DNA from: a virus
IMG/VR virus record: IMGVR_UViG_3300045998_000033
Span: 1 to 46,520 of that record
Length of the DNA: 46,520 nt
Strand: one strand, 5' to 3'
A model generated the notes under the pieces. That model worked only from the letters and a program-made list of their open reading frames with translations. It was not told the origin of the DNA and made no database searches. Shown here one piece after another: positions 12,558-30,682 of this stretch. The position numbers were made by a program, and so were the translations under genes. Numbering within the stretch: position 1 is the first letter of the stretch; each line of letters opens with the position of its first letter.

Positions 12558-12558
12558 C

Positions 12559-13755
12559 ATGGTTGCTATTAACGACGGAGATGGGTGGGTTTCAGTAACC
12601 CGACCTGAGACAACTGATATCGCTCTGGGAGGTAACGAGACAGACTTCCCTGGTAAATTTTTTCGAGAGTTAGCTAGTCGGGATAAGTGTATCTTCGACC
12701 TGATTCTTACCAGCATAAGTATCATTTCAACTAACACTTTTGACATTTCAGCCAACACAGGTAATATTTCAACCAACACAAGTAACATTGCGACCAACAC
12801 AAGTAACATTGCGACTCTTACTACTCGAACTGACCTAATTCCTGGTCGCAATAAGATTATCAATGGTAGCTTTGATATCTGGCAACGTGGTACATCGTTT
12901 AATTTATCTCAGTACACAGCAGACAGATGGGTCAATGTCTTACTTGGAAGTTCTGCTTCTACCGTAACTCGGCAAAACTTCACTCTAGGTCAAACTGATG
13001 TTACTGGTAACCCCTCCTACTACTATCGTGCAACAGTAACCTCTGGTGGTACAGCTGGTAGCGGCGTTCTTGTTCAACAACGAATTGAAGACGTTCGTAC
13101 CTTTCAAGGTCAGACAGTAACTGTGTCGTTCTGGGCTAAGGCTAACGCTACTAAGTCCGTCTCAGTTGAGCTTGAGCAGAACTTCGGTACTGGTGGTTCA
13201 CCTTCTACTGTAGTTACTGGTATTGGTGTTACTAAGTTAACTTTAACCTCCTCCTGGGCCAAGTATACTGCTACTGTGTCTATTCCTTCTATCTCAGGTA
13301 AAACTCTAGGTTCTAACAATAATGACTTCCTTGCTTTCAATATTTGGTTTGAGGCAGGGTCAGACTATAACAGTCGTACTAACACTCTAGGGTTACAGTC
13401 AGGTACGTTTGATATCGCTCAAGTTCAGATTGAAGAAGGTAGTACAGCTACCAAGTTTGAGGAGTTACCTCTATCTACTCAACTTCAGTTGTGTCAGCGT
13501 TACTATGGTAACAATGGTGGAGGTGGATACATATTGTATGGTAACTCTTTAGGTACTTTGGCTCTAGCTTCGCTAACTCTTCCTGTATCTATGCGAACAG
13601 CTCCTACTGTGGTTGTAATTTTAGACAGCTCTAGTAATTGTAGTATTACTGCTAATTCCCACGGAACTAGTTGTGTCTACGTTACAGCTAGCCCTGTCAA
13701 TTCAAGTGTTGCAGCTTATATAGATGTACGAGTATCAGTAGACGCGGAGCTTTAA
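12559..13755 (+). CDS. Tail fibre with a carbohydrate-binding-like domain
   Basis: This is a 398-aa protein. Residues 1-50 probably dock to the tail. Residues about 58-95 are heptad repeats of the NISTNTS/NIATNTS type, the pattern of a trimeric fibre stem. From about residue 97 (NKIINGSFDIWQRGTSF) a jelly-roll domain of the CBM4/9-like type found in many phage fibres follows, with SFWAKA and W-rich strands. The end (from LQLCQRYY) is a further beta domain. It directly follows the nozzle gene, so it is likely the main tail fibre or host-recognition protein; the 417-aa repeat protein later in the operon could be a second one. Confidence 0.8.
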   Translation: MVAINDGDGWVSVTRPETTDIALGGNETDFPGKFFRELASRDKCIFDLILTSISIISTNTFDISANTGNISTNTSNIATNTSNIATLTTRTDLIPGRNKIINGSFDIWQRGTSFNLSQYTADRWVNVLLGSSASTVTRQNFTLGQTDVTGNPSYYYRATVTSGGTAGSGVLVQQRIEDVRTFQGQTVTVSFWAKANATKSVSVELEQNFGTGGSPSTVVTGIGVTKLTLTSSWAKYTATVSIPSISGKTLGSNNNDFLAFNIWFEAGSDYNSRTNTLGLQSGTFDIAQVQIEEGSTATKFEELPLSTQLQLCQRYYGNNGGGGYILYGNSLGTLALASLTLPVSMRTAPTVVVILDSSSNCSITANSHGTSCVYVTASPVNSSVAAYIDVRVSVDAEL

Positions 13756-13756
13756 C

Positions 13757-13930
13757 ATGGAAATCACAAACGCTAAGTATGTAACAAATAACACAACTGG
13801 CGAAGTTGTAATTCAAGCTGTTGTATACGGAACAGATGTATTTGTTCCAACTGTACCAGGTAACCGCTACTACGATGAGATGCTACGACAGATAGCAGAT
13901 GGTGTTTTAGTTATCGAAGGTGAACCATGA
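13757..13930 (+). CDS. Small late protein of 57 aa
   Basis: This short frame runs from the ATG at 13757 to a TGA whose bases overlap the next ATG (ATGA). The protein has a beta-rich N-terminal half and ends in an acidic helix. It is just one base after the fibre stop and uses codons like its neighbours, so it is very likely real. It may be a fibre-assembly helper or a small virion protein; no family is recognised. Confidence 0.75.
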   Translation: MEITNAKYVTNNTTGEVVIQAVVYGTDVFVPTVPGNRYYDEMLRQIADGVLVIEGEP

Positions 13931-14379
13931 GTTGGAGTGTTGGGGATATCGTAGAAATTGGTTACGCTATTCCTAGTTTATATATCAGCCCACCTGTTCA
14001 TTATGAACAAATTAAGACATCTAAACAAGGTGTTTATATGTTGGTTGTTGTTCGTAACGAACGTACTAGATTCGGAGACAGTGAGCTATTCTATAAAACT
14101 CTAGTCCAAGACTACTCAGCTATTCGAGGACGTTTACAATACCCTTCTCAAATTAGTGTAGGGGTTACTTCTGACAACTCTAACCTACTAGACTATCAGA
14201 CTGATTTAATTCAGTCTGATGAGTTAGAACTAGAGTGGGTTGTCATTAAAGAACCATTACGTAGAGTAGGAGGACAAATTCAGCTAATTGTGTTCAACGA
14301 TGGTTCTGATGCTTTAACCATCGATGGTTATGAAATCAAAACAGGTGACGTAAGTTCTAGTAGAGTGAGGTCAGGTTAA
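13927..14379 (+). CDS. Late protein of unknown function
   Basis: This is a 150-aa beta-rich protein with no recognised family. It overlaps the preceding gene by ATGA and the next by TAATG, so it is translated within the late operon between the fibre and the internal virion proteins. A minor tail or fibre-associated structural role is the best guess from context. Confidence 0.75.
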   Translation: MSWSVGDIVEIGYAIPSLYISPPVHYEQIKTSKQGVYMLVVVRNERTRFGDSELFYKTLVQDYSAIRGRLQYPSQISVGVTSDNSNLLDYQTDLIQSDELELEWVVIKEPLRRVGGQIQLIVFNDGSDALTIDGYEIKTGDVSSSRVRSG

Positions 14380-15587
14380 TGGGAGCTGTTGCACCGGTAG
14401 TAGGAGTAGTTGGTGCTGTTGCTGGTATGGCTCAGCGCAATGCTCAAGTAGCACAATCAGAGCGAGCGGCGAGACTTCAGATTGAGGCTAACAACCGGTC
14501 GCATCAGATTAAAATGTTGGACTTAGAACGTGAGCGAAGACAGCAACAGTACGCAGCTGATTTAGAGAAACAACAAGCTGTTGCTAACGCTCAACTAAGC
14601 CAGTTACAGTTGCGGATGAATGAGATTGCTGAGAGAGTTGCTATTGCTGAGCAGCTTACTTCAGTTAACTTTGACGATGCTCAAGCTCAGTTAGTGGCAG
14701 CTGCACAACAGTATGATGCTATGCTTCAGTCGTTTCAGGCTGAGCAAGGTCTAGCTGAGGAAGAGCTTAACCGTACTCAGGAGATGGGTCAAGCTTACAG
14801 TCAACTCCGACAACGTAACGACCAGATTAAAGAGGCACTCAACCAAGGTGACCTTAGACGTGCTCAACTGCTTAGTGCTACAGCACGTCAGGATGACACC
14901 AACATGGGAATCTCTGAAGCTGTAACAGCCTACGATGCTAACCAACAAGCTCAACTAGAGTCTGAGTTAATGACTGAGGTTATGGCTGACCGTGCTCAAG
15001 CTGAGTATATGGAAATGGATGAGGATAGAGCACAAGCTTTCCAAGCCTTACTTTATAAGATTAATCAATCTCAAGAGGTAAGTCAACTTGCTGCTTCTAA
15101 CCTCCTCCAAGCAGACACAGCTGATAAGGCTGATGCTGCTAGAGAAAGATTAGAAGATTACAGACAAGCAGTTAGTCGTATTGCCCAACTAGGGTCGCAA
15201 GGCATCGACCTAGCCAAACAAAGCAGTCTACTACAAACTGACATCAATTTAGGTTATGGTGAAACAGCTAGGAAGAATGCAGCTTTGGCTACAGGTGTTG
15301 AGACTGCTTCGAGAAATGCTCAAATTTCTGCTTCGGTACCTAAACGCAATTGGGCTGGTAGTTTACTAAATGTAGGTATGTCTGCTATGCCTTTGTTAAG
15401 TATGAGGTTTGGAGGAAGTACAAATTTATCAGGTTATCGTCCTAGTAGGTTCTCTGTTGGGTTGTACCAACCTCAACAACCTCAAGCTTTACCTGGGTTT
15501 AATACGTTTAACGAAGCCTACATTTCCTCTAACCCAGTTATACCTAGAAGTACAGGCATCTCTCCGGTTAACATTACTCCATACTAA
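14379..15587 (+). CDS. Internal virion protein, gp14-like candidate
   Basis: This is a 402-aa protein. Residues 1-17 form a small hydrophobic Ala/Val/Gly segment. Residues about 20-310 are an almost continuous Ala/Gln/Glu-rich helix and coiled coil, and the C-terminal 80 residues are Pro/Ser-rich and flexible. The position just before two giant internal proteins matches T7 gp14, the first ejection protein, which makes the outer-membrane pore. T7 gp14 is only 196 aa, so this one is twice as long. The assignment rests on position and architecture, not on a sequence match. Confidence 0.65.
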   Translation: MGAVAPVVGVVGAVAGMAQRNAQVAQSERAARLQIEANNRSHQIKMLDLERERRQQQYAADLEKQQAVANAQLSQLQLRMNEIAERVAIAEQLTSVNFDDAQAQLVAAAQQYDAMLQSFQAEQGLAEEELNRTQEMGQAYSQLRQRNDQIKEALNQGDLRRAQLLSATARQDDTNMGISEAVTAYDANQQAQLESELMTEVMADRAQAEYMEMDEDRAQAFQALLYKINQSQEVSQLAASNLLQADTADKADAARERLEDYRQAVSRIAQLGSQGIDLAKQSSLLQTDINLGYGETARKNAALATGVETASRNAQISASVPKRNWAGSLLNVGMSAMPLLSMRFGGSTNLSGYRPSRFSVGLYQPQQPQALPGFNTFNEAYISSNPVIPRSTGISPVNITPY

Positions 15588-15589
15588 TT

Positions 15590-18500
15590 ATGAAAGGTGT
15601 AAAGTTTTTAAAGGGTACGCCAATTAACCCTACAGCTGCGGAGGTACCTAAACCTACTGGGGAGTTACAGGTACCCGGTCAGTCTATGACCACAGCAGAT
15701 TTAGCAGCACAGTCTATGCAAAATGCTCAAGCTGTTGCAGCTCGTAATGCTCAGGTGGCTTCTAGTGCGTCGTCTACCTTAGCCTCTGCAGTCCAAGCTT
15801 CTGGGGTAACCTACCCTAGAGAAGGGTTTGACTTAGCAGGTCTGGGTAAGATGATTACCGAGACCTACTCTAGTATTACCCAGGCTCGGGCAGAACGAGA
15901 AAGTCAACAGGCTTTGTTTGACCTAACTCGTGATGCTGAGCAGTTACGATTGAACGCATTAAACATTGTGTCCTCTGATGGGGGTTTAGCATCTTACGAA
16001 ACTGCGACTGCTAACTTACTTAAACGATATCGAGAGCGAGTTCCGTATGATGCGTTCGAGCAAATCTTCTCAAATGTAACCAATGCAGGTCGTGATGCCT
16101 ACTCTACTGTAAATGGTAGATTGTACCAACAATCACAGGAGTTAGAGGATGCTGCTACTGCAATGAAGGAACGTGAGATTTTACTATCTCTACGACCCTC
16201 CATTTCTCAGATGTCCTCAGTTGACCCTACTCGACGTGCTGATGGTTGGACTGGTATTCAGACCTATTTGGAAGAGTTAGCAACATCAGGGGAAGTCGAT
16301 ATGGCTTCCTATTTTCGTATTGGTACAAGTGTGTTAGATGCAGCTCTGGAAGCTGATATCCAACCTGGTTTAATCGAAGCTGCACGTAATCGACTTAACG
16401 AAACTGTAGAGTCTATCACACTTCAACAACAGGCTTATGTGCAATGGGCACAAAATCCCTCCCCCCAAGGTTACATGGAGTATGATAAAGCTATATTTGA
16501 GATTCTGGCACAGTACCCGGATGCACCTATCTTGGCTTCTGACCCTACTGTATTCCTGCAACAGTACCAAGCTTTACAAGATTTACAGCAACGTCAGAAT
16601 CTATTGATAGCTGAATCTCCTGCAGCCAGGGCTGCTTTAGAAGGTGCACAAGACCTCCCTACTGGTGTAATTGACCAGTTGGCATTATTCTTGATGCATC
16701 CTAGTCAAGGTAGAATCTACCGCACTCAGATTGAACAATTAGAAGCCCAAGCCGAGAGAGCAGGTTTAATTAGTGATTGGCCCTCAGTCTTAGCTCAGTC
16801 AGAGTTCTATGAGCAAACCCTAAGTCGTCTTACTGAGTTAAACCGAGAAGTTGGTCAAGCCAAGGCAGACTTGCAGAAGTTAAGGTCTGACTCTTATACT
16901 GATACACAAAACCAAATTATACGTTGGCGTAGTGCAGCACAGGGAGAAATTCCTGATAGCGTCGGTATGGCGGCGGTTCTTCAGAGTCCGGCACAGTTTA
17001 ATATAGACTCAGAAATTATAGAGCTGTTAAGGAAATCTCAGTTAACTCCTGAAGAATTAGAGACGCTAACTCGTATTGCAAATACGTTAGCACAAGCTGA
17101 AATGAACGCTGCTACAGCACAGTATAACACACTTTTTCAAGAAAGGGAGCAGTTAATTTCACCTTTACGACAGTTGTCAGCAGGTGAACAAAGGTTGATT
17201 ATTGAGGTTAATGGTAACCCTGTAGTCAATAACGAGTTCTTTAATCAGCTTGTACCCCTAGCCTCTGAGACTTTACAGAGTGTACAAAATCGAATTCAAC
17301 AGGTTAATGCAGAGATTACTGCTGCTCAGCAAGGACCACCTCTAGGTACTCAAGCAGGAGGCAGAAGAAGCCCTTTTAGTAACCCTTCTCTGCACAGGCA
17401 GACCATTGAAGGGGTTGAAGCTATTCTGCCATTCCATCCTACTGATGACGTAATCTTACTGACTGGTGAGTTCGGTGAGCCTAGGCGTACACACAACCAT
17501 GGTGGAGTTGACCTTGGTGTCCCAATTGGTACGCCTATTCTAAACTATATCGCAGGTACAGTAGAGGCTGTAGGCTATTACGGTAATTACGGTAACTTGG
17601 TTGATGTACGTGCATCCGATGGTTCAATACACAGATTTGCTCACTTAGATGATACCAACGTAATTGTAGGGCATCAAGTTATGCCTGGAGATGTACTAGG
17701 TTACTCAGGTAACACAGGTAACTCTAGAGGTGCCCACCTACACTGGGAGGTTATACTAGATGCAGATTCAGAAGGCAATGGTACTAAGGTAGACCCCCTT
17801 CAGTGGTCTTCCCAGCATATAGTTTCCCAACCTTATGCAGTTAGAGGTCAGTCTAATCCCACCCCACAACAGTTACAGGGGGTTCCGTTAGATAACGGAG
17901 GTTACTTACAAAACGGACTTATATATGATGCAGACGGTACAGCCAACCCTGCTGCCTACACTGCTAATGCCCCTATGTATCCTGCTGTTGCCCCGACTGT
18001 TAAAAGCCAAACCCCTAGTGACCCTAGCTTCAATTATGGGTATCAAGTTGTAGCTGATGATACCAGGTTTAGAACTGAACTTCATCGAATGGCTGCTAGG
18101 TTAGATATCCCAGCTCAGTGGATTTTGGATGTTATGGCCTTAGAGACTGGTGGTACATTTGACCCTAACTCTCGAAACTATGACGAAAGGTCCAGAGCGT
18201 TTGGTTTAATTCAGTTTTTACCTAGTACTATTAGGGGGTTACAACAGAACCACCCAGACCTAGATGAAGCTGACTTATACTCAGGTGATAGAACCAGACA
18301 GCTTAAGTGGGTTGAGGCCTATCTATCCGAGATGAGTGACAAGATTGATACAGTCTATGACTTGGCTGTATGCATCTTTTTAGGTGAACCTCGATTAGAC
18401 CAATACCAAGCTAATCCTGATTCTATAAGACGAGCAGGCGACTTCAACATAGGAATAAGTGCTTATGTTGATAAACTAGGAAAATATGCAGGTAGACGAT

Positions 18501-18610
18501 ATCGACCTATCTTTCCTACTGGTAGTGAGATTCACACTAGACCAGTAAGAGGTTGTACTACTTGTATGATGATGTCAACTAATTTCCAACCACACGAATC
18601 TTATGAGTAA
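15590..18610 (+). CDS. Internal virion protein with M23 peptidase and lytic transglycosylase domains
   Basis: This 1,006-aa protein probably opens the cell wall during DNA entry. Residues 1-600 are mainly helical, Gln-rich structural sequence. A peptidase M23 (LytM) domain spans about 622-730, with zinc ligands H637 and D641 in HGGVD and H718 in HLH (H716 catalytic). A Pro/Ala-rich linker follows. A lytic transglycosylase (SLT) domain spans about 830-930, with catalytic E852 in ALETGG and the AFGLIQFLPST motif. T7 gp16 carries one transglycosylase; here peptide and glycan bonds could both be cut. The gene starts 2 bases after the preceding stop and overlaps the next by 8 bases. Confidence 0.88.
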   Translation: MKGVKFLKGTPINPTAAEVPKPTGELQVPGQSMTTADLAAQSMQNAQAVAARNAQVASSASSTLASAVQASGVTYPREGFDLAGLGKMITETYSSITQARAERESQQALFDLTRDAEQLRLNALNIVSSDGGLASYETATANLLKRYRERVPYDAFEQIFSNVTNAGRDAYSTVNGRLYQQSQELEDAATAMKEREILLSLRPSISQMSSVDPTRRADGWTGIQTYLEELATSGEVDMASYFRIGTSVLDAALEADIQPGLIEAARNRLNETVESITLQQQAYVQWAQNPSPQGYMEYDKAIFEILAQYPDAPILASDPTVFLQQYQALQDLQQRQNLLIAESPAARAALEGAQDLPTGVIDQLALFLMHPSQGRIYRTQIEQLEAQAERAGLISDWPSVLAQSEFYEQTLSRLTELNREVGQAKADLQKLRSDSYTDTQNQIIRWRSAAQGEIPDSVGMAAVLQSPAQFNIDSEIIELLRKSQLTPEELETLTRIANTLAQAEMNAATAQYNTLFQEREQLISPLRQLSAGEQRLIIEVNGNPVVNNEFFNQLVPLASETLQSVQNRIQQVNAEITAAQQGPPLGTQAGGRRSPFSNPSLHRQTIEGVEAILPFHPTDDVILLTGEFGEPRRTHNHGGVDLGVPIGTPILNYIAGTVEAVGYYGNYGNLVDVRASDGSIHRFAHLDDTNVIVGHQVMPGDVLGYSGNTGNSRGAHLHWEVILDADSEGNGTKVDPLQWSSQHIVSQPYAVRGQSNPTPQQLQGVPLDNGGYLQNGLIYDADGTANPAAYTANAPMYPAVAPTVKSQTPSDPSFNYGYQVVADDTRFRTELHRMAARLDIPAQWILDVMALETGGTFDPNSRNYDERSRAFGLIQFLPSTIRGLQQNHPDLDEADLYSGDRTRQLKWVEAYLSEMSDKIDTVYDLAVCIFLGEPRLDQYQANPDSIRRAGDFNIGISAYVDKLGKYAGRRYRPIFPTGSEIHTRPVRGCTTCMMMSTNFQPHESYE

Positions 18611-21600
18611 CGCACTAGACCGAGTCAAACAAGAAGCTATTGAATCTACTACGCCTAGCGTAGGTGAGTATATAGGTACTACGCCTCGGTCTAGTGAACC
18701 TGCTCAACCTACACCTCCTAAGCTACCTGACCTACCTGACCCAGGTACTGTTGAAGGTCCAGACATGCCACCTACGCCAGATGTAGAAGTGGCAGATGTA
18801 GTGGGTCAACCTTCTCCTGTAATTAACCCTTCAGTAATTAACCCTCCTTCTGTTGAAGAAAGTACAGCGAATTATAATCGAGTTGTAAATTTACCACCTA
18901 CACCAGGTACTCCAGAGAGTGGGTTAACTTTTTTACCTCCTGAGGAAGAACCTAGTTGGGTTGATTTGGCTAGGGGTTTACAACAATCTCAGTACACTCT
19001 ACAGATTCCTGATTTTACTTCTAACTGGTTCGATTCTATAACTACAGGTGACGTTAGTCTAACCCAACCAGCATTTGATAGTACTGCTAGAGATGTTAAT
19101 AGAAATGTAAGTTTATGGCAGCGATTTTTATTTGGTCCTGATGGTACACTGGCTTCAGACGGTCAAGTAGACCAGGCTCAACTAGGTCCACTTACTGTAC
19201 CAGATGAAGGTCTACTAGGTACACCTTTGTATGCATTGCGTTTAGGTTTTAATCTAGCCATGGCGATGTATGCTGATGTAAGAAGAAACCGACAATCTGT
19301 CATTAACTATGATAGGTTGTTTGGTGGACCTAATGCTGAAGCGAGTCTGTTCAATTCTCCTGAACGTCGTGAGGAAGTCTATAACCAATTATCACCTAGT
19401 CCTGACCGTAATATCACTAACTTAGAAGCTGCTATTACTGGGGAGGTTCAAGACTATAACTTCCTGTCTATACGAGACTTGAATGGTACCAATAACACCT
19501 TTGGAGTCTTTACCGAGGACGAAGTTAGAGGTTGGAATACCACTGGAGCTGATGAACTTCGTGAGCGTTTTCGTGAGAACTTTGAAGAACGTCAACAGTT
19601 TCGTCGTTTAATTGGTTTTCCTCGAACTTTTTTACTTGGTCCGCTTGCTAACCCTCAAATTTTCAACCTTGAAGTAGGTCAATCTGAAGCCGACCAAAAT
19701 GAAACTAGAGCGTGGCAGAATCTTTATGGTCGAATACTAGAAATACCTTATGCTGTTGTAGACAACTTTAGAATGGGGTTATCTATCGCCACAGGTAACG
19801 ACATCTCAGTCGTAGGTAAAGCGCTCGTTGCTGCAGCTGCTGATGCCATTAACCCGTTAGACCCTTTTAACGCCGCAGACATGTATAGGATGTGGCGTAT
19901 TTCTCGGTTGAGTCAGTCCGCTCGACGTGGTACTCAACGTGCTGCTATTGAATCTGACTTTGTTGGTGCCCTTACTTTTGGTAATAGACCCACCACTCAA
20001 CAAGCTCGTTTAGATTTCATCCGTGCTGTTGAGAATATGAAGTTTGATGAGTTAACCGATGATGAGTTTCTCCGAATTGTAGACAGGCTAAGTGAAGAGC
20101 GTGGTGATTTAGGTCGGATAGCAAGAAATAATCCTGAGTTACGGGAGCGTCTTGCTCGAGTACGGGCTACAGGAGAAGTAAGTAGTACAACTAGAATCAC
20201 TGATAATGCTTCTGACTTAGTAGATTCAGAGAAGTCACAACAACTAACCAGTTTGCGAGAGGAGCTTGCTGAAGTACAAGCTAGGCTCGATAGAGCCTGG
20301 GATGCTCGTGACGAGTCAGCTATATATCCTCTGTACATTAGAAAGTTGGAACTAGAGTCGCAAATAGATAATTTGACCGCATCTACTCAAACTCCTGTTG
20401 TTGTTTCTGACTTAACAGATTTAGAGCGGTCACGACAGCTAGATAGTTTGCGAGAAGAGCTTGCTACCTTACAAGCTAGTCTCTACCAAGCCGTTGATGA
20501 TGGCGATTCTATAGCTGTAAATAATCTAAACCTTAGGATTGAGGAGCTAAGGTCGCAAATAGATAATTTGACCGCAGCTACTCAAACGGGTGCTGTTGTA
20601 GATGAGCTATCTCGCCTAGCTGACGACATGTTAGGCTCAGGGTACAGTAGCTTATCTCGTCGAGTCGATGTAGATGCGATTCCACAGGGTACACCTAATC
20701 GTTTTTTAAGTTTAGCCGTTCGAGAAGGCAGAGACGATTTAGCATCACGTATTCGTGATACTCTAAGACGATTTGATGACCTAAATGTATCCAATCAAAT
20801 CGCGTTACTTACAGCGGATGCAATAGACCTGAATCGTAAATGGTTACGTGACCTAGCCGACGATATCCTAGACCAGTTAGACAACGTCTCAAGTAGACTT
20901 GCTAAACTACACTCAGCCAGAGCTGGTGCAGACATTCTACGTAGCTTTCTGGATAACCCCTCTCTTCTACGAAATCGGGATGACATAATTGATGATTTAC
21001 TAGAAAGACTAGGTAGAGCTTTACCCGAACCTCAACCTACCAGTCTGGCAGATGAAGGGGTTACTACAATTGAAACAACTGCTGTAACTGTACCTGATAC
21101 TCCTACCAAACCTAAGACTAAACCTAGGAAGGTTAGAGATTTAGGTGAGTCTATAGACGAGAAGATTAGTAAGGTTGAAGCTAGACTCGATGAGTTAAAC
21201 GAGTCATCTTGGAAAGGAACCATCTCTGATGCTGAACGCGATGAGTTAAGGCGGTTAGATGACACCCTACGAGACTTACAGTATCGTAAGGACTATGACC
21301 TAGCAAAAGCAGGGGAGTCACTACCAGATGGTTTGAGCACTACTGCTAAGTTAGTAGAGAATGGTGAACTTGTAGATGTTGACCCAGTCACAATTAAGTT
21401 GACTGACCAAACTGATAAGTTAGACGAAACTGCGGTCTCGCTACAAAGAGTGGCTGATGATGCTAAGCAGAATAAACCTACTAAACGGGAAGCCGATATT
21501 AATCGGGACGCTGCTACGGTTAGAGCCGAGGTTTCTACTAATCCTGCAGTAACCAAGTCTAACACTCAGCAGAAATATAAGGAGATTGCAGACCAACTAA

Positions 21601-24600
21601 GTTCCACACAAAACTTAACTGTTAGACAGCTCAAGGACATCGCCAAGGAGTACAAAGTACCTGGTTATAGTAAGTATAGAAAGAAAGCTGACCTACGTCA
21701 GTTTCTTACTGATTACTTTACTGAGAAGTCTAAACGTACTGGGTTAAGTGCTACTACACCTACTGAGCCTATTAGGGTTCACCGTGGTAATACTTCCACT
21801 GAGCCTGACTTCGTACCTAAAGTTAAGAAGCCTAAGAAGTCTACTACAACACCTAAACCTGCTGAACCAAAACCGGTTTGGATGGAGAAACCCTCCTCTC
21901 CGAAGGTTCAAGTGTTTGAGTATCTCAAACAAGAACACGACCCAGCTGTACTTGCTGAAGTTGCTGGTATGATTAAGTCAGAATCATTTAATGGTTCTGC
22001 TGATATGCTAGAGGCTTTGACTTATGTACCTCCTGAGGTTTTAGAATCTCTTAGGAGGCTCAATAAGTTAGGTGTAACCCTCTGGAACGGTCAGGAAGCT
22101 ATCGACCTTGAAGTATACTCTAACTGGAAGTCTGAACCATACAAAAATGGTGGTATCTTCGCCGGTTTTGAAAAGGTTATGATAGTGGCTCCTGTTCCTG
22201 GTACCATAACACATGAGTCTATCCATGCTCAATTTTACTACCCTAGAGTCAAGTTAGCAGTTGAGCAAGGACTACACCCTAGAAGTTACTACGAGATTAA
22301 CCCAGATCTATTTGAGTTTGCAAGTAAAGCCAACACTACCTTTGGAGGGTTTCTACCTTGGATTAGAGAGACTGATTACTACAAACAGACCTGGTCTCAA
22401 GCTCTACAACTCGCTGTGAATTGGAAGACTACCATAGACAATGGTCGTCTTCCTATAACGCATTCAATTATAGACTTCATACATGACAAGACTGTTGAGT
22501 TAGCTATACAGTCTGTAGATTCTGGTATAGATTCTACATTCACTGCAAGGTCTTCAGTTAGTATAGCTATGGCCGATGCTATTGCTTATGCCTTCACTGG
22601 TCGAATCTTAGATACTGATAAACCACTCCAACATGCGTTTAGTATTAAGATGATACCAGATGTGAAACCTCTTCTTAGCAAAGACCCGTTCTTCGGTTAC
22701 TACTTTGAAGAAGAGATGATAACCTATGGTACTCAAGGTTATCCTACTGTAGCTGAGGCTGTGTTGACTGGTAAACCTTTTGACCCAGCTGGTGTTGAAG
22801 AACAACTCCGCAAGGTTCGTATCAGAGAGGGGTTAGAACCAATGACCCCATCCCCTGTTACACCTAAACCTACTACAGCTGCACCTACTCCAGCTGTACC
22901 GGAACCTACCCCAACTCCTAAACCTAGTCCAGAACCTAGCCCGACTCCAACTCCTAGTCCAACCACACCAGAGCCTACTACTACAGCTGCTCCTACTCCT
23001 CAATTAAGTAGTATGGAGGAGGAGCTTGCTAAGCTGGAGGCCAGGTACGATAGAGCTTTGGCTGCTAACAGGTTCGACGCTGCAGATGCTATTGACCGTA
23101 AGATTGAGAATTTAAAGTCTCGGATGCGTCGGCAATCTCAATTAGGAGACGAGTGGGCTGAGGATGTCACTCAGCAGCTTGGTCCTCAGAGTGTTGAATT
23201 ACTTGGTAGTAGTGATTCTGTATCTAACCTAGCTGCGTCTACTAATTACCAGTATACCCAAGCTGACCTGGAGAGGGTTAACATCTACAATACTAGCTTC
23301 TTAGGATTTAAGCCTGGTGCAAAGATTAACTTCGACCGGTTTAAGCGAGCTTTCCAGTATGTGCCTCGTAGCCTATTCGATGCTATTAACTGGAGTAAGG
23401 TCACACTCTATCACGGTTTGGATTTAGGCGCAATCAAAACTCGTACCAGATACAGTGATGGTTGGGCAGGTCTAACTGTCGGTCGTGCAAACGGCGAAGC
23501 TCATGTTTTCATTAAGCCAGAGGCGTTTGACTCAGCTGTGTTAACACACGAGTTACTTCATGCCCACTTTCGACAAATACGAGATACTGCACCTGATATC
23601 CAACTCAAGTTAGTTACCAGAGAGCTTGACAATCCCGAATTAGTGAGCTATCCTGGTTACAGCACTGAAGCGATAGACACACAAGCCAAAATATTTACTG
23701 ACCAATTACGTAAGGTTATCGATGAGATTGACAACACAGGTACACCAATCGACCGAGGGTTTACCCTCAATGGTTTAATCGAGTTAGGTAATGTTATCTT
23801 CGACGACTTAGACTATCGAATGTTTACTGCATTCATTAAAAATATGCCTAAGTCTTACGCTGAAGATTACCAAACTTGGTTAGCTGAGGTGATGATGTTC
23901 CAGTCGTATCAGAAGGCTTTAACTGATTTAGGGTTAGTCTCTGGTACTGAAGACTTCCTACAGTTTTTTGTTGACCTATCTGAAGTCTCTTTTCTATCTG
24001 AGTTGCAAAGTGTGATGGGTATAGCTGCTTTAGAAGAGTTGCTAGCTTATCGCCTTACTTGGGACCCAGGGCATTTCGATATCATGATAGGTAATGAGCG
24101 TTCACTAACACCGGATGAATTTTATGTCACAGCTACCACAAGACGTTCTAGAGACTCTACGCCAATTCGACGCGGATATTCAGAAACTGGTGAGCCAGGG
24201 TCTGGATTACTACCAGGCGGAGAGCCAGGCGGCTATGCAGAACGGTATCCGATTGATTCCGAATCTCAACTCTTATCGAGGTTCGGGGCGGAAAATGAGT
24301 TCGGACCAGGACTCTACACCACCTCAGATTTCCAACGAGCCGAGTGGTATGGACAAGCCCCAACCCGACTCAACCGCACTGGAGGAACCCCCCAAGGAGA
24401 CCCCTGGGTTGACACCTACACCATTGACCCAAGAGCCAACATCGCCCACCACTCCGATGTCTTCCCCGACTATGACAAGTTCCACCGAGCAGGTCGATTC
24501 GATGAACTTGCCGCAGTAAACCGCAAGGCTCTATCGGAGGGGGTTGACGTAATCGATACGGGTGCAGAAGATTACGTCATCCTCAATCCCAATGTAGTTA

Positions 24601-24920
24601 TGGATGTAAGCCGAACTGCTGTGGACAGTTTAGAAACCCCCTTCAAAATGCGCATAGCTGAGTACAACGCTCGACTGTCTTCTGAGTTACCTACAACTGA
24701 AACCAGGTTAAGCCTAGCTCGCCAAGGTCTACGAGAGGTGGGTCAACACTATGAAGACATCCTAGTTCGTGCTCGGCAGACTTTCAGCGACGAAGCCCGT
24801 ACTCAGTTTAACCGACTTACAGACTTATCTACTCAGGTTAAAGACCGAGCCAAGCAAGGTCGTCGTTCAATGGTCGAAGCTGTAGAGAACCTAATTGAGG
24901 ATGTAACTAAATGCCTGTAA
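18603..24920 (+). CDS. Giant multidomain internal virion protein (polyvalent type)
   Basis: This 2,105-aa protein sits in the ejection-protein block. Residues 1-110 are Pro/Thr-rich and about 110-540 structural. A duplicated coiled-coil unit starts at residues 545 and 610. A SAP-like DNA-binding helix pair lies near 1005-1035. A first metallopeptidase-like domain has HESIH at 1204-1208. A Pro/Thr linker (1413-1466) and a third coil follow. A second, related metallopeptidase-like domain has HELLH at 1649-1653. An ADP-ribosyltransferase-like C-terminal domain has FGPGLYTT from F1900 and ends with an acidic turn and VILNPN near 1990. From about 24,120 to 24,290 the +1 frame looks more protein-like than the main frame, implying two compensating frame breaks. 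The last codons overlap the next gene. Domain calls come from motifs by eye. Confidence 0.8.
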   Translation: MSNALDRVKQEAIESTTPSVGEYIGTTPRSSEPAQPTPPKLPDLPDPGTVEGPDMPPTPDVEVADVVGQPSPVINPSVINPPSVEESTANYNRVVNLPPTPGTPESGLTFLPPEEEPSWVDLARGLQQSQYTLQIPDFTSNWFDSITTGDVSLTQPAFDSTARDVNRNVSLWQRFLFGPDGTLASDGQVDQAQLGPLTVPDEGLLGTPLYALRLGFNLAMAMYADVRRNRQSVINYDRLFGGPNAEASLFNSPERREEVYNQLSPSPDRNITNLEAAITGEVQDYNFLSIRDLNGTNNTFGVFTEDEVRGWNTTGADELRERFRENFEERQQFRRLIGFPRTFLLGPLANPQIFNLEVGQSEADQNETRAWQNLYGRILEIPYAVVDNFRMGLSIATGNDISVVGKALVAAAADAINPLDPFNAADMYRMWRISRLSQSARRGTQRAAIESDFVGALTFGNRPTTQQARLDFIRAVENMKFDELTDDEFLRIVDRLSEERGDLGRIARNNPELRERLARVRATGEVSSTTRITDNASDLVDSEKSQQLTSLREELAEVQARLDRAWDARDESAIYPLYIRKLELESQIDNLTASTQTPVVVSDLTDLERSRQLDSLREELATLQASLYQAVDDGDSIAVNNLNLRIEELRSQIDNLTAATQTGAVVDELSRLADDMLGSGYSSLSRRVDVDAIPQGTPNRFLSLAVREGRDDLASRIRDTLRRFDDLNVSNQIALLTADAIDLNRKWLRDLADDILDQLDNVSSRLAKLHSARAGADILRSFLDNPSLLRNRDDIIDDLLERLGRALPEPQPTSLADEGVTTIETTAVTVPDTPTKPKTKPRKVRDLGESIDEKISKVEARLDELNESSWKGTISDAERDELRRLDDTLRDLQYRKDYDLAKAGESLPDGLSTTAKLVENGELVDVDPVTIKLTDQTDKLDETAVSLQRVADDAKQNKPTKREADINRDAATVRAEVSTNPAVTKSNTQQKYKEIADQLSSTQNLTVRQLKDIAKEYKVPGYSKYRKKADLRQFLTDYFTEKSKRTGLSATTPTEPIRVHRGNTSTEPDFVPKVKKPKKSTTTPKPAEPKPVWMEKPSSPKVQVFEYLKQEHDPAVLAEVAGMIKSESFNGSADMLEALTYVPPEVLESLRRLNKLGVTLWNGQEAIDLEVYSNWKSEPYKNGGIFAGFEKVMIVAPVPGTITHESIHAQFYYPRVKLAVEQGLHPRSYYEINPDLFEFASKANTTFGGFLPWIRETDYYKQTWSQALQLAVNWKTTIDNGRLPITHSIIDFIHDKTVELAIQSVDSGIDSTFTARSSVSIAMADAIAYAFTGRILDTDKPLQHAFSIKMIPDVKPLLSKDPFFGYYFEEEMITYGTQGYPTVAEAVLTGKPFDPAGVEEQLRKVRIREGLEPMTPSPVTPKPTTAAPTPAVPEPTPTPKPSPEPSPTPTPSPTTPEPTTTAAPTPQLSSMEEELAKLEARYDRALAANRFDAADAIDRKIENLKSRMRRQSQLGDEWAEDVTQQLGPQSVELLGSSDSVSNLAASTNYQYTQADLERVNIYNTSFLGFKPGAKINFDRFKRAFQYVPRSLFDAINWSKVTLYHGLDLGAIKTRTRYSDGWAGLTVGRANGEAHVFIKPEAFDSAVLTHELLHAHFRQIRDTAPDIQLKLVTRELDNPELVSYPGYSTEAIDTQAKIFTDQLRKVIDEIDNTGTPIDRGFTLNGLIELGNVIFDDLDYRMFTAFIKNMPKSYAEDYQTWLAEVMMFQSYQKALTDLGLVSGTEDFLQFFVDLSEVSFLSELQSVMGIAALEELLAYRLTWDPGHFDIMIGNERSLTPDEFYVTATTRRSRDSTPIRRGYSETGEPGSGLLPGGEPGGYAERYPIDSESQLLSRFGAENEFGPGLYTTSDFQRAEWYGQAPTRLNRTGGTPQGDPWVDTYTIDPRANIAHHSDVFPDYDKFHRAGRFDELAAVNRKALSEGVDVIDTGAEDYVILNPNVVMDVSRTAVDSLETPFKMRIAEYNARLSSELPTTETRLSLARQGLREVGQHYEDILVRARQTFSDEARTQFNRLTDLSTQVKDRAKQGRRSMVEAVENLIEDVTKCL
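20235..20624 (+). repeat. Tandem 195-base duplication inside the giant protein
   Basis: Two coiled-coil units of 65 residues begin at 20235 and 20430. They share LREELA near the start and SQIDNLTA near the end. The 24-base stretch starting at 20358 and 20553 is identical, so the duplication looks recent. Confidence 0.8.
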
Positions 24921-27900
24921 ACCCCAACCCTAACGCCAGCTCTAATTGTCGTATCGTTATTGACAACGCAATAGGCAACTACGGCAAAATGGGGGCTGAT
25001 GAGTTTGATACAGCTGTCGACGGTATTAAGCTGGAGTTGGATAACCTTGAAGGTTACCGACTCCAACAGTACCAGAAGATGGCTAAGACTCGGGAAGCCG
25101 CAGAGTACGCTCAAATTATGGTTAACCGTACTCGAATGCTTCAGAATATGTTCGACTTGGTTGAACTAAAACCTGGAGAGTCTAATGCAGTTCTTAACTT
25201 TGCTGCACTTGCAATGGACTGGACTCTTGGTAAAGTAGGTCAGGTTAAGCGGACGATTGATATGCAACGAGAGTCTGCTGCGTCTATGTTAGAGCATGCT
25301 GTACGGACCTCTGTGTCCCGTGCAGTTACTGAACTCCAAAACACTATTGACCAGATGCTACCTAATGCCTCACTCTATGACAAACGACTACTAGGTTTAC
25401 TGTCTGTAGAGATTGGGGCACTAGGAGCTGAATTAGAGGGGTTAAGCACTTCACCCTTAAGTAAGGTGTTTAACGAAAACCGATTTAACCGCTTTCAAAG
25501 TTGGGCTTCTAGCAACTACGGTTTAACACCTGAGCAGATTAATTTACTGGCTAGACGAGGTATCCAAGTAGGTGCAGCCGAAGAGGAGATTCGCATCCTA
25601 GCCAAATCACTAGGGTTGAGTATAGACCGACTAAATGACCTAGGTTACATTCACCGTAGTTATACTCGGTTAGGTCTAGCCAGGTTAGAAGATATCCGTG
25701 GTCGAACTATTGGTTCTAACTTAGACCAATTGGGTATTGGAACCCACCCTCTGAGTGGGTTAAGTCGTCAGTTTAACTTCATCCAACCTACTACTCAAGA
25801 AGCTTTGGTGTTATTTGCTGAGTTGACTGGGTTGACTAAAGGTAAGGTCTATGAGTCCTTTGCGTCTACTGGTAAACCTCATCAATGGTTACAAGGTCGA
25901 GCCAAGGATATCCAAGATGCTGTACAAGTAACTGATGGTAAAGTACTTGAGTTAGTAATTGGTGAAACTTCCAAGGATAAAGATAGGGTTCAATCTCTGT
26001 ACCGTAAACTTCGTGAATACACTAAACCTCGTTCGTCTGAAAGGGTAAGGTTAACTAGAGCCTTCAAAGACCAGGATTACTTTGAGTTATCCCAGTTAGC
26101 AGTAGAGTTGCTAAGGCCTCAAGGCTATGATGCTGTATCTTTTGTAGATAGACGTACTGGAGATGGGTTCCTATTAAACTGGTCTGCTACCTTAGAAAAG
26201 GTAGATGCGACTGGTGAATTAATGGAATTGTTTAGCAACCCATACGCTCTAACCGAGTTTATTAGGGAGAGGTTAACTGTTAACCAAATCGACCAGTTAG
26301 TTGATTCCGGTTTGTTGAATATCTTACCCATGAGTTCTGTTGAAATCATGGAACTCCTCAACGGGATGTATGGGATGTCTTTTGACAACTTAGGTCAACT
26401 TATGGAAGTAGACCTAATGACCGCATCCTACCAGTATACTGAATCTTTAAAGAATGCAGCTAGACAAGGTGCAATGATTCAGATACTGACAGACGGCAGA
26501 GCTGAGGCGGCTGGTTGGGTCATACCAGCTACTGACCCCATTCTTAGAGACCGAGCCTACAAGGATTACGTTACCATAGGTGACAAGTTTAATGAGCACT
26601 TCCTCAATATTAATAATAAAGCACCTACTAAAGAGTTAGAGGAATTGCTAGTAGAGATGGGGTTAGAGCGTAAGTCTGCTAGAGACTTAGCAAGCTCTAA
26701 AGCCCATCCAATTGTTGCTAACGTAATCAACCAGTATATTGCAACTTCCTGGAATGCTAGTGTGATGGGTATCGCTGGTCAAACCGTGATGGAGGTTAGC
26801 CAAGACGCTCTTAAATATGGTGTGGCTGAAGGTGGGTTAGGTTATATAGACCGTAACATCGCTGAAGCTTACTTTAGTGCATCTTGGTTTGGGTTTAACC
26901 CAGGTAGAATCAAAGAAGCTTTTGACACCATCAGAGGGTTAAGTCGAACCAACGACCTGAGTTTCATCAGCGATAGACCTTGGGCCTATTTTGAAGGTAG
27001 GCAGATTTCCAAGAGAGAAGCTGTTGAGATGTACATGCAGCACTTCTCAGCTAATTCAGCTTCTGATATGCCTACTATTGAGAACGGGTATATTGCAGGA
27101 GGGTTTAGAAGTTGGTTGTACAAGCTTCAAGAGTTTCCTACTCACATTAAGAAGTGGTACGAATACGTAAACGCTGACCCCTCCCAATATGGTAGAGCTC
27201 AGCGTAGTACTTTTCAACAGTTCAAACGTATTGTAAACGGGACTTACAAAGGCTCAGTTGACGTACTAGATGAAGGTTGGGTACGTATTGTGTCGATGGC
27301 GCATCAGGGTGAGATGTCAGTTAAACTGGCTTTCTGGCTCAGTCAATTTGAACCTATCGGTACAAAAGGCAAGTCTGCTAACTGGTTTGGTTACCTGGCT
27401 ACTGGTGGTTACTACCAATACAGTAGAACCTTCGAGGAAGTTTCCAAGCGAATGCAAGATGCCTTTATTAACCCCAACACTATGGGCTGGCTTCCTCGTA
27501 GTGCCAATACTTGGTATGGTAACTTTCTCCAGTATGCTGTTAAGGCTCCTTACCAAATGGGTCGTGCTGTAGTCACTAACCCTGCTAGACTGTACAGATG
27601 GCACAGAGCACATAGCATGTGGAATCAAATCCAACAGATTAGGTATGAACCTACTGAAGCTGGGTTTGCTGATTGGGAACTTGAAGAGAGACCACACTAC
27701 TTAGGTCAAACCCAGGATAAGTTTGGTAGACCTATGAACGTGTTGTTGTTTCCACAAGGTTACGACTCGTTCAGCCGAGTTTGGACTACTATTGACAAAA
27801 CAGGTAAATCTATCCAAACTATAATGGGTGACCCACCTACTGGACAACGTAAGTTGGCTCAGATTAAAGGAGAGGGTCCACTTGCACCTGAGTCTATTGC

Positions 27901-28723
27901 TAACGAAGTTGCTCGTAATGCAGGTAGACTTCAACAGGCTTTGGTTGAACAGCTTACTGGAGAACGTGTAACCTCAGGTCAAAGTCTAAAACTCAAGGAT
28001 TACGAAAAACGACCTAGCTTCCTGTTCTGGAATCCTCACCCTCGTACAGTCGCATTAGTACGGTCAGCTATACCTGCTCTTGGTTACGTAGATGACCTAA
28101 ACCTATTTGGTATGTTTGGGCAACCTCAGATTGAAGATGCTAGTGGTCGTATCTTAGAAGAAGGTGTACCTGGACTAAGAGGAGTTGAACGCTACCCAGC
28201 TAGAGCACTTGACCTAACTAGAACCTCAGACAACATGACTCGATGGTTCGTTTTAGCCTTTAAGCTAGCTGGGGCCAATGTCAGAATCTCTTCGGTAGAA
28301 GACAACGTAGCTAATAACTTAGCAGAAGTTAGTTTTGTACTAAGAGACTTAGAGAGGGGGTTTAACGAAAGTCTGCGAGACCTCCAATTCGAGGCGGCTA
28401 GAGGTGTAATAGACCAAAGTCAATGGGAACGTCGCGATAAAGCTACATCTGACCTACTTGCTCAAATTTACTGGTTAAGCTTGGAAGAGATTAGGTTAAC
28501 CCTCCTCGCGGGTGAGTATGGTATTATACCAAGCGAGCTCCAGAGTGATATCTTCCATGCTACCGTTAACAGTTACACCACGCTAAACAATCTACCTCCT
28601 CAAGTTCATAGAGAGCTTCAGGAGCTACACAACTCCATTAATCAGATGGGTAGTCAGTACGAGGATATTCGTAATGGTCAAACGAGTACCACAACGGAAG
28701 AACAAGGTGAAGCCGTCCGGTAA
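24911..28723 (+). CDS. Large internal virion protein of unknown function
   Basis: This is a 1,270-aa mostly helical protein with no domain I recognise. Its size, its position right after the two other giant proteins and its 10-base overlap with the preceding gene suggest an ejection/core protein comparable to the long helical part of T7 gp16 (1,318 aa). Trp/Tyr-rich patches (for example around residues 810-880) and many amphipathic helices would suit a periplasmic conduit. It overlaps the next gene by 50 bases. The function rests only on context. Confidence 0.7.
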   Translation: MPVNPNPNASSNCRIVIDNAIGNYGKMGADEFDTAVDGIKLELDNLEGYRLQQYQKMAKTREAAEYAQIMVNRTRMLQNMFDLVELKPGESNAVLNFAALAMDWTLGKVGQVKRTIDMQRESAASMLEHAVRTSVSRAVTELQNTIDQMLPNASLYDKRLLGLLSVEIGALGAELEGLSTSPLSKVFNENRFNRFQSWASSNYGLTPEQINLLARRGIQVGAAEEEIRILAKSLGLSIDRLNDLGYIHRSYTRLGLARLEDIRGRTIGSNLDQLGIGTHPLSGLSRQFNFIQPTTQEALVLFAELTGLTKGKVYESFASTGKPHQWLQGRAKDIQDAVQVTDGKVLELVIGETSKDKDRVQSLYRKLREYTKPRSSERVRLTRAFKDQDYFELSQLAVELLRPQGYDAVSFVDRRTGDGFLLNWSATLEKVDATGELMELFSNPYALTEFIRERLTVNQIDQLVDSGLLNILPMSSVEIMELLNGMYGMSFDNLGQLMEVDLMTASYQYTESLKNAARQGAMIQILTDGRAEAAGWVIPATDPILRDRAYKDYVTIGDKFNEHFLNINNKAPTKELEELLVEMGLERKSARDLASSKAHPIVANVINQYIATSWNASVMGIAGQTVMEVSQDALKYGVAEGGLGYIDRNIAEAYFSASWFGFNPGRIKEAFDTIRGLSRTNDLSFISDRPWAYFEGRQISKREAVEMYMQHFSANSASDMPTIENGYIAGGFRSWLYKLQEFPTHIKKWYEYVNADPSQYGRAQRSTFQQFKRIVNGTYKGSVDVLDEGWVRIVSMAHQGEMSVKLAFWLSQFEPIGTKGKSANWFGYLATGGYYQYSRTFEEVSKRMQDAFINPNTMGWLPRSANTWYGNFLQYAVKAPYQMGRAVVTNPARLYRWHRAHSMWNQIQQIRYEPTEAGFADWELEERPHYLGQTQDKFGRPMNVLLFPQGYDSFSRVWTTIDKTGKSIQTIMGDPPTGQRKLAQIKGEGPLAPESIANEVARNAGRLQQALVEQLTGERVTSGQSLKLKDYEKRPSFLFWNPHPRTVALVRSAIPALGYVDDLNLFGMFGQPQIEDASGRILEEGVPGLRGVERYPARALDLTRTSDNMTRWFVLAFKLAGANVRISSVEDNVANNLAEVSFVLRDLERGFNESLRDLQFEAARGVIDQSQWERRDKATSDLLAQIYWLSLEEIRLTLLAGEYGIIPSELQSDIFHATVNSYTTLNNLPPQVHRELQELHNSINQMGSQYEDIRNGQTSTTTEEQGEAVR

Positions 28724-29196: not shown

Positions 29197-29432
29197 ATGC
29201 TAGGTGGTAAGTTCATTAATAACGAGCTATCTAGCCAAGGTTAGTTGAGGGCTATTTAGAAAAAGCTAGACAGCTGGTTTTTAATTCAAATACACTAGAT
29301 GCAATTTGGGTAGCTAATGCAAATGTACTTGAGTACAATTCAACTGACGTACTTCTGTTTGTAGCAACCGCTAGAAGGGGAGGGTCAAATAGTTTTGTGT
29401 CTACTACAGTTAATTATCAGGAGATTATATGA
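29197..29432 (+). pseudogene. Frameshifted small gene before the repeat protein
   Basis: A good GGAG site 8 bases upstream leads to the ATG at 29197, but this frame stops after 15 codons (TAG at 29242). Reading then continues cleanly in the -1 frame to a TGA at 29430-29432, which overlaps the next ATG as ATGA. The joined product would be about 78 aa with normal codon use: MLGGKFINNELSSQG, then LVEGYLEKARQLV and onward. One extra T in the GGTT at 29239-29242 would restore the frame. It is either a recent one-base deletion, a sequencing error, or a frameshifted gene. No family is recognised. Confidence 0.65.
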
Positions 29433-30682
29433 GCACCGATACAGGGTCTATGCAGATTGAATTGTTTAGACTTTTCCAAAACTTAGGGGGTGTTGTGTTA
29501 CCAGACCAGAATTCTAACAGCTACTCTATACAGGGGTGGTTAACTCGAATCAATTCATTACTAGAAGATGATGTAAATTCTCAATCTGTAACTTACTCTA
29601 TCGTAAGTTACTCCGGTAATTATTATCGTCTGCCCACCTACGCAAGAACGCTTGATTTAACTTCAACTGATGCTAGCTTGAAAGGTTTTAATGGAGGTTT
29701 TACTGACGGTAGATACGGTTATTTTGTGCCACTTGACAATGGCGTATACTTCGGTAAAGTAGCAAGGGTTGACTTAACCGATTTCTCAACTGTATCTGTT
29801 CTTGATTTAACTTCAACTGATGCTGACTTGAAAGGTTTTAATGAAGGTTTTACTGACGGTAGATATGGTTACTTTGTGCCATTTGTCAATGGCTTATTCT
29901 TCGGCAAAGTAGCAAGAGTTGATTTAACTGATTTCTCAACCGTATCTGTTCTTGACTTAACTTCAACTGATGCTAGTTTGAAAGGTTTTCTTGGAGGCTT
30001 TACCGATGGTAGGTATGGTTACTTTGTGCCATATAACAATGGTGCAACTTTTGGTAAAGTGGCAAGGGTTGACTTAACTGATTTCTCAACCGTATCTGTT
30101 TTAGATTTAACTCAAACAGATGCTGACTTGAAAGGCTTTGGTAAAGGCTTTACTGATGGTAGATACGGTTATTTTGTGCCACTTAGCAATGGCGCTTACT
30201 TCGGCAAAGTAGCTAGGGTTGATTTAACTGATTTCTCAACGGTATCTGTTCTCGACTTAACTCTAACAGATGCTGACTTAAAAGGTTTTTACGGAGGTTT
30301 TACTGATGGTAGATACGGTTATTTTGTACCAAGTAACAATGGTGCAGCCTTCGGCAAAGTAGCAAGAGTTGATTTAACCGATTTCTCAACCGTATCTGTT
30401 TTAGATTTAACTTCAACTGATTCTGACTTGAAAGGTTTTATTGGAGGTTTTACTGATGGTAGGTATGGTTATTTTGTACCAAATAACAATGGTGCATTCT
30501 TTGGTAAAGTAGCTAGAGTTGATTTAACTGATTTCTCAACTGTATCTGTTCTCGACTTAACTTCAACTGATGCTGACTTGAAAGGTTTTCACGGAGGTTT
30601 TACTGACGGTAGGTATGGTTACTTTATACCTAATAACAATGGTGCAGCTTTTGGTAAAGTAGCCAGGGTTGATTTATTTTAA
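29429..30682 (+). CDS. Seven-repeat beta-propeller-like protein, receptor-binding candidate
   Basis: This is a 417-aa protein. Residues 1-85 are a unique N-terminal part that probably attaches to the virion. From 29,684 there are seven repeats of exactly 150 bases (50 aa); the last is cut to 32 aa. The frame is GF-xx-GFTDGRYGYFVP-xx-NG-xx-FGKVARVDLTDF. A LDLTSTD strand before repeat 1 would complete the last blade, as in the closure of seven-bladed propellers. The repeats are nearly identical except at the six x positions. A ligand-binding tail protein is the best guess; the function is inferred. It overlaps the broken gene upstream by ATGA. Confidence 0.75.
   Translation: MSTDTGSMQIELFRLFQNLGGVVLPDQNSNSYSIQGWLTRINSLLEDDVNSQSVTYSIVSYSGNYYRLPTYARTLDLTSTDASLKGFNGGFTDGRYGYFVPLDNGVYFGKVARVDLTDFSTVSVLDLTSTDADLKGFNEGFTDGRYGYFVPFVNGLFFGKVARVDLTDFSTVSVLDLTSTDASLKGFLGGFTDGRYGYFVPYNNGATFGKVARVDLTDFSTVSVLDLTQTDADLKGFGKGFTDGRYGYFVPLSNGAYFGKVARVDLTDFSTVSVLDLTLTDADLKGFYGGFTDGRYGYFVPSNNGAAFGKVARVDLTDFSTVSVLDLTSTDSDLKGFIGGFTDGRYGYFVPNNNGAFFGKVARVDLTDFSTVSVLDLTSTDADLKGFHGGFTDGRYGYFIPNNNGAAFGKVARVDLF
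29684..30679 (+). repeat. Seven tandem 150-base coding repeats
   Basis: Units start at 29684, 29834, 29984, 30134, 30284, 30434 and 30584, with no indel between them. Differences concentrate in the codons right after GGTTTT and on either side of the AATGG(C/T) codons. Confidence 0.92.

What the first reader, a model, noticed from the sequence alone, without database searches (positions are those of the whole stretch)
18603..24920. A 2,105-aa probable ejected protein with several enzyme-like domains
Seen: a single late gene in the internal-protein block combines a SAP-like helix pair (about 1005-1035), two HExxH domains (1204-1208 and 1649-1653), coiled coils, a Pro/Thr linker and an ADP-ribosyltransferase-like C-terminus (FGPGLYTT at 1900, VILNPN near 1990). 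Known: T7-type internal proteins are injected before the genome, and polyvalent phage proteins can carry such effector domains. Inference: this is an injected multi-enzyme effector that could modify or cleave host defence or transcription proteins at the first moment of infection. In a podovirus without its own RNA polymerase this would be a notable way to act on host RNA polymerase early.
Basis: partly seen in the sequence, partly recalled or inferred. Interest (0 to 1): 0.85.

Follow-up and report, generated by a model that had tools for sequence, protein, structure and literature searches.

The report
Ejected multi-domain protein of freshwater cyanophages
This giant phage protein belongs to a family whose solved relative sits inside the virus particle ready for ejection into the host; it carries an ADP-ribosyltransferase-like fold plus two possible protease motifs, and every complete family member has a single cysteine at its very end, matched by a single cysteine at the start of its neighbour, a possible chemical latch that is untested.

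Summary
The 2,105-aa gene is real and all described motifs are there. It is the ortholog of Anabaena phage A-4L gp27, solved as chain B of PDB 9k3a, "Cyanophage A4 pre-ejectosome". It fills a conserved slot in Saffermanviridae-type freshwater cyanophages, between an M23 internal protein and a ~1,100-aa partner (chain A of 9k3a). Two domains place it in the family: an N-terminal core (E=2e-5) and a C-terminal ART-like domain (E=5e-8); a structure model of the latter matches 9k3a_B, then ART-superfamily folds. So "ejected protein with an ART-like C-terminus" is supported. Caveats: the window has Arg where 20 of 21 scorable relatives keep the catalytic His, so transferase activity is doubtful; the two HExxH motifs exceed chance (P=5e-5) but their fold could not be confirmed; the RNA polymerase target is untested. 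Between core and ART, members carry 207-1,447 residues of exchangeable cargo. New: all 20 complete members are purged of cysteine except one in the last 1-3 residues, and the partner has one near its N-terminus. This supports ejection and suggests, unproven, an inter-chain disulfide latch.

The parts
18603..24920 (+). 2,105-aa ejection-slot protein (ortholog of A-4L gp27, PDB 9k3a chain B)
   Evidence: ORF; synteny with PP, Pf-WMP4, A-4L, TR020, Lbo240; HMM hits
19206..19856 (+). N-terminal family core, residues 202-418 (G-LG--LY-L ... DV ... A-G---D)
   Evidence: HMM built from 27 relatives without the window: E=2.2e-5, better than 1,000 shuffles
20223..20612 (+). tandem helical-hairpin-like repeat, residues 541-605 and 606-670
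   Evidence: ungapped self-alignment, score 154
21609..21707 (+). Rho_N/SAP-like helix pair, residues 1003-1035
   Evidence: Pfam Rho_N E=2.2e-5, just under the curated cutoff
22023..22238 (+). first HExxH region, residues 1141-1212 (THESIHAQF at 1203-1211)
   Evidence: motif above chance; similar lead-in to the second region, P=0.003, or 0.014 with the motif held fixed
22848..23003 (+). Pro/Thr-rich linker, residues about 1416-1467
   Evidence: sequence
23358..23570 (+). second HExxH region, residues 1586-1656 (THELLHAHF at 1648-1656)
   Evidence: motif above chance; fold not confirmed
24150..24671 (+). ART-like domain, residues 1850-2023 (R1857 in place of His; Y1905; E1989/D1990)
   Evidence: family HMM, alignment, AlphaFold pLDDT 74 and Foldseek to 9k3a_B E=3e-7 then RES toxin, exotoxin A domain III, tankyrases
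24912..24914 (+). the only cysteine codon of the gene, Cys2104 of 2105
24911..28723 (+). 1,270-aa partner (A-4L ortholog is chain A of 9k3a); single cysteine at residue 13
15590..18610 (+). 1,006-aa internal protein with M23 peptidase and a transglycosylase-like domain, C-terminal CxxC (989-992)
   Evidence: Pfam M23 1.8e-22; A-4L ortholog in PDB 9k2v, 10 copies
14379..15587 (+). 402-aa internal protein at the position of A-4L ORF29; no cysteine
   Evidence: synteny

Best explanation
The gene encodes the large cargo-bearing component of a Saffermanviridae-type pre-ejectosome. It is packaged in the head with the M23 internal protein and with its partner encoded just downstream, and leaves the virion at infection (its place in the virion is shown for the A4 ortholog and taken over by homology; ejection itself is inferred). 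The N-terminal core, conserved in all members, probably serves packaging or channel building (inferred). The C-terminal ART-like domain and the modules inserted between core and ART form a polyvalent effector that reaches the host cytoplasm and acts on host proteins or processes the protein itself (inferred from domain type). In this phage the cargo is a Rho_N/SAP-like helix pair and two HExxH regions.
For: Gene order int400 - M23 - this slot - partner is the same in PP, Pf-WMP4, A-4L, TR020, Lbo240 and in IMG/VR contigs. The A-4L slot and partner proteins are chains B and A of one PDB entry, titled Cyanophage A4 pre-ejectosome; the A-4L M23 protein is in 9k2v. The window belongs to the family by two independent domains. 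ART fold: the model matches 9k3a_B, then RES toxin, exotoxin A domain III, tankyrase/PARPs; Pfam ART-PolyVal matches 6 of 17 and DUF3990 5 of 17 family domains. Cargo swapping: PP and Pf-WMP3 slots are 97% identical except a 217-aa insert in PP; Pf-WMP4 and Lbo240 share 75% to residue about 890 and then differ; Pf-WMP4 carries an extra ADPrib_exo_Tox/ART domain, E=1.1e-9. Cysteine purge as in known ejected proteins: slot 0.06-0.08% against 0.7-0.9% in other large proteins of these phages; T7 and P-SSP7 gp15 and gp16 have none; N4-like vRNAPs have none, which authors tie to passage into the cell.
Against: The window's ART has Arg1857 where 20 of 21 scorable relatives keep His, and the third catalytic residue varies across the family, so the domain may be structural. 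HExxH folds are unconfirmed, with no clear third zinc ligand. Sequence identity to A-4L is low, so the protein's place in this phage's virion is by homology, not by proteomics.
Confidence: 0.8

Rival explanations
1. The protein is a purely structural ejectosome component. The ART-like domain is a retired enzyme fold kept as a packing or assembly module, and the inserted regions are spacers.
For: The C-terminal part is recognised in the A4 pre-ejectosome model; His is Arg in the window and Phe in L022, the strand 1-2 part is missing in L021, and the third residue is D, N, K, G or H across members; the N-core and the terminal cysteine are more conserved than the catalytic residues, and L009 lacks the ART domain altogether.
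Against: His and Tyr are kept in most members; some members add a second, intact-looking ART or an HExxH motif, which a spacer would not need; HExxH twice is unlikely by chance.
Confidence: 0.35
2. The two HExxH regions are autoproteolytic domains that cut the long chain for packaging or release, as proposed for phage P1 DdrB and N4 vRNAP.
For: Polyvalent proteins often hold one to five zincin-like peptidases with proposed self-processing roles; the regions flank a Pro/Thr linker and precede the ART domain.
Against: Most relatives have no HExxH motif, so processing cannot be a general need of the slot protein; fold unconfirmed.
Confidence: 0.3
3. A T4 Alt-like modifier of host RNA polymerase.
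For: ART fold; no phage RNA polymerase among the window proteins searched; PHROGs names the Pf-WMP4 slot family 'RNA polymerase ADP-ribosylase'.
Against: That label is an annotation, not a test; Alt is of the R-S-E class while this domain is nearest the H-Y-D class; catalytic His lost here.
Confidence: 0.12

Closest known systems
Anabaena phage A-4L gp27 (PDB 9k3a chain B, cyanophage A4 pre-ejectosome)
   Same: Same gene slot, N-core, ART-like domain near the C-terminus, single C-terminal cysteine
   Different: A-4L has the catalytic His and no HExxH; the window protein is 388 aa longer with Rho_N-like and two HExxH regions
Polyvalent proteins (Iyer et al. 2017, PMC5512222)
   Same: Very long virion-linked protein with several unlike enzyme-type domains, ART of the ART-PolyVal/HYD kind, zincin-type motifs
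   Different: The word 'cyanophage' does not occur in that paper's text; His replaced in the window; peptidase fold not confirmed
Pf-WMP4 slot protein (phrog_832) and PP slot protein (phrog_33290)
   Same: Orthologous slot, shared ART-like module and N-core
   Different: Other cargo: an added ADPrib_exo_Tox-type ART in Pf-WMP4, a 217-aa insert in PP; no HExxH
T7 internal core proteins gp15 and gp16; N4 vRNAP
   Same: Ejected giant proteins free of cysteine
   Different: No sequence match found; this family keeps one terminal cysteine

Membership tests
Saffermanviridae pre-ejectosome slot protein (A-4L gp27 type) | position between the M23 internal protein and the ~1,100-aa partner | tested here: met
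Saffermanviridae pre-ejectosome slot protein (A-4L gp27 type) | N-terminal core domain | tested here: met
   HMM E=2.2e-5 at residues 202-418
Saffermanviridae pre-ejectosome slot protein (A-4L gp27 type) | C-terminal ART-like domain | tested here: met
   HMM E=5e-8; Foldseek to 9k3a_B E=3.3e-7
Saffermanviridae pre-ejectosome slot protein (A-4L gp27 type) | presence in the virion | not testable with these tools
   known here only for the A-4L ortholog
ART-PolyVal / Tox-ART-HYD2 | ART fold | tested here: met
   pLDDT 74, pTM 0.66; nearly all listed PDB hits are ART-superfamily proteins, after 9k3a_B
ART-PolyVal / Tox-ART-HYD2 | His in strand 1 | tested here: not met
   Arg1857 at this column; relatives keep His in 20 of 21 scorable cases
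ART-PolyVal / Tox-ART-HYD2 | Tyr in strand 2 | tested here: met
   Tyr1905
ART-PolyVal / Tox-ART-HYD2 | Asp in strand 5 | tested here: inconclusive
   E1989/D1990 near the column; column variable in the family
Zincin-like metallopeptidase | HExxH motif | tested here: met
   two, P(>=2 by chance)=5e-5
Zincin-like metallopeptidase | zincin fold and third zinc ligand | tested here: inconclusive
   model pLDDT 38, Foldseek uninformative, no Pfam zincin above cutoff
Polyvalent proteins | several unlike enzymatic domains in one virion-delivered chain | tested here: inconclusive
   ART fold supported, peptidase folds not; delivery by homology
SAP domain | SAP/Rho_N helix-extended-helix | tested here: inconclusive
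   Rho_N 24.8 bits against 24.9
T7 internal core protein gp14/15/16 | sequence similarity | tested here: not met
   no PHROG match of this kind for the protein

The most novel reading that the evidence does not exclude
The slot protein and its partner are joined head to tail by one inter-chain disulfide (C-terminal Cys of one, N-terminal Cys of the other), made in the virion or in the oxidising space outside the cytoplasm and broken in the host cytoplasm, so that a redox switch frees the effector from the channel protein. Purging of all other cysteines from both chains, acquired cargo domains included, keeps this pair exclusive.
Probability: 0.3. Interest if true: 0.8.

Novelty: new variant of a known kind. 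Interest (0 to 1): 0.62.

Why it matters
It ties a class predicted mainly from sequence (polyvalent effectors) to a family with a solved virion structure, in phages small enough to study, with near-identical pairs that differ by one cargo module (PP and Pf-WMP3). The single terminal cysteine on each of two adjacent ejection proteins is a sharp, cheap-to-test clue to how ejected proteins are held and released, and the cysteine purge may serve as a general sequence mark of ejected proteins.

Tried and rejected
Close relatives of the whole protein: none in phages, IMG/VR or GTDB scans. HExxH regions: no Pfam, PDB, phage, plasmid or IMG/VR relatives; a structure model with a two-row alignment failed and its fold search is meaningless. 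L021's HELTH region aligns poorly with the window's, so it was left out of the model. A first ART HMM wrongly included a chance HGS segment of L021 and the wrong segment of Pf-WMP4; rebuilt. Partner alignment too diverse for a scan; M23 scan of GTDB found none. Overlap of the reading frames as the cause of the terminal cysteine was rejected: it is kept where the genes do not overlap (PP, A-4L, TR020, L007, L020, L021). A zinc site shared with the M23 CxxC is disfavoured: TR020 lacks that CxxC and L021 lacks it at the C-terminus, yet both keep the pair. The A4 structure paper (doi 10.1073/pnas.2423403122) is not held, so I cannot say what its authors already noted.

Full report
What is there. 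Two HExxH motifs in one protein of this make-up are expected in about 5 of 100,000 shuffles. The lead-in sequences of the two motifs resemble each other (YVP...VTL..G...THE..HA.F; P=0.003, or 0.014 with the motif held fixed), which suggests but does not prove an internal duplication. Rho_N scores a hair under the Pfam cutoff at 1003-1028.

What phage. The record is a 46,520-base virus contig. Its tail and internal genes match the freshwater cyanopodoviruses of Saffermanviridae at about 20-35% identity, and its replication genes are of the same kinds. No RNA polymerase was found among the proteins searched, but not every small ORF was scanned and the record may be incomplete.

The slot. In PP, Pf-WMP4, A-4L, TR020 and Lbo240 the gene order is tail protein B, a ~400-aa internal protein, a ~1,000-aa M23 internal protein, a 1,459-1,717-aa protein, and a ~1,100-aa partner. 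The window has the same order at 9291-28723, with an extra fibre-like gene and a 150-aa ORF between tail protein B and the 402-aa protein. IMG/VR contigs extend the family to over 25 slot proteins, some of them fragments. An N-terminal core HMM converges on all 27 relatives and hits the window at 202-418 (E=2.2e-5). An ART-domain HMM built without the window hits it in two collinear pieces, 1895-1953 and 1974-2023 (E=5e-8). Of relatives complete enough to judge, only L009 lacks the ART domain.

Virion evidence. A profile of the ART domain finds PDB 9k3a chain B, which is the full A-4L slot protein; chain A is the A-4L partner. The entry is titled 'Cyanophage A4 pre-ejectosome with C1 symmetry'. 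The A-4L M23 protein is in 9k2v with ten chains. The paper (Hou et al. 2025, PNAS, doi 10.1073/pnas.2423403122, seen only as a reference) could not be read.

ART fold. AlphaFold with 17 family rows gives pLDDT 74, pTM 0.66. Foldseek ranks 9k3a_B first (E=3.3e-7), then RES toxin, exotoxin A domain III, tankyrases and PARPs; each of these later hits is weak (E 0.01-0.3), but they are nearly all of one superfamily. Pfam ART-PolyVal matches 6 of 17 rows, best 1.1e-4. The polyvalent-protein paper gives this ART class the residues His, Tyr, Asp. Relatives keep His in 20 of 21 scorable cases (Phe in L022; the segment is missing in L021) and Tyr in 19 of 21, while the third position varies. The window has Arg1857, Tyr1905 and E1989/D1990. 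So the fold is well supported, the activity in this phage is not.

Cargo. The stretch between N-core and ART varies from 207 to 1,447 aa and the window has the longest. PP and Pf-WMP3 slots are 97% identical on both sides of a 217-aa insert present only in PP. Pf-WMP4 and Lbo240 are 75% identical to about residue 890 and then unrelated; Pf-WMP4 ends in a domain matching ADPrib_exo_Tox (1.1e-9) and ART (1.5e-8), although R-S-E ARTs of the Alt class were reported absent from genuine polyvalent proteins. HExxH occurs only in the window (two) and L021 (one) among the slots checked. This is the pattern of a delivery scaffold with exchangeable effectors.

Cysteines. Each of 20 complete slot proteins (27,581 residues) has one cysteine in its last three residues; the single extra one, in L055, lies before a likely better start codon. 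Ten fragments lacking the C-terminus (7,568 residues) have none. Partners have one cysteine near the N-terminus; TR020 has two more. Ends read after the pattern was seen fit it: L071 and L074 slot and partner. Other large proteins of these phages carry 0.7-0.9% cysteine. T7 and P-SSP7 gp15 and gp16 have none, and their gp14-position proteins have one at residue 2; N4-like vRNAPs have none. The purge therefore supports ejection. The kept pair on two proteins that form one complex in A4 suggests a head-to-tail disulfide. This is an inference: related sequences are not independent, no coordinates were examined, and other roles for the terminal thiols are open.

Verdict. Observation confirmed; interpretation partly supported: an ejected, polyvalent-type protein, yes; active ART, active peptidases and an RNA polymerase target, unproven. 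A new variant of a known kind.

Noticed in passing
window 24912-24914 and 24947-24949; L002-L074: One cysteine at the extreme C-terminus of every complete slot protein and one near the N-terminus of every partner protein, with nearly all others purged.
   Followed up: partly
window 24911-28723: PHROGs calls this gene a tail fibre/host-specificity protein, but the A-4L ortholog is chain A of the pre-ejectosome entry 9k3a, so the label is probably wrong.
   Followed up: partly
L003 16404-20783 (Pf-WMP4): The slot protein carries a second ART of the ADPrib_exo_Tox type at residues 1247-1397 besides the shared ART-like domain.
   Followed up: partly
L002 16629-21767 against L011 11629-16116: PP has a 217-aa in-frame insert (residues 1174-1391) that the otherwise 97% identical Pf-WMP3 protein lacks.
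   Followed up: partly
window 15590-18610: Besides M23, the profile of this protein matches a lytic transglycosylase structure (9udh) near its C-terminus, and it ends in a CxxC...H motif.
   Followed up: no
L077, L078: T7 gp14 and the P-SSP7 protein at the same position each have a single cysteine at residue 2; gp15 and gp16 have none.
   Followed up: no
window 29429-30682: 417-aa ORF without cysteine after the partner gene, matched only by weak short PHROG hits.
   Followed up: no
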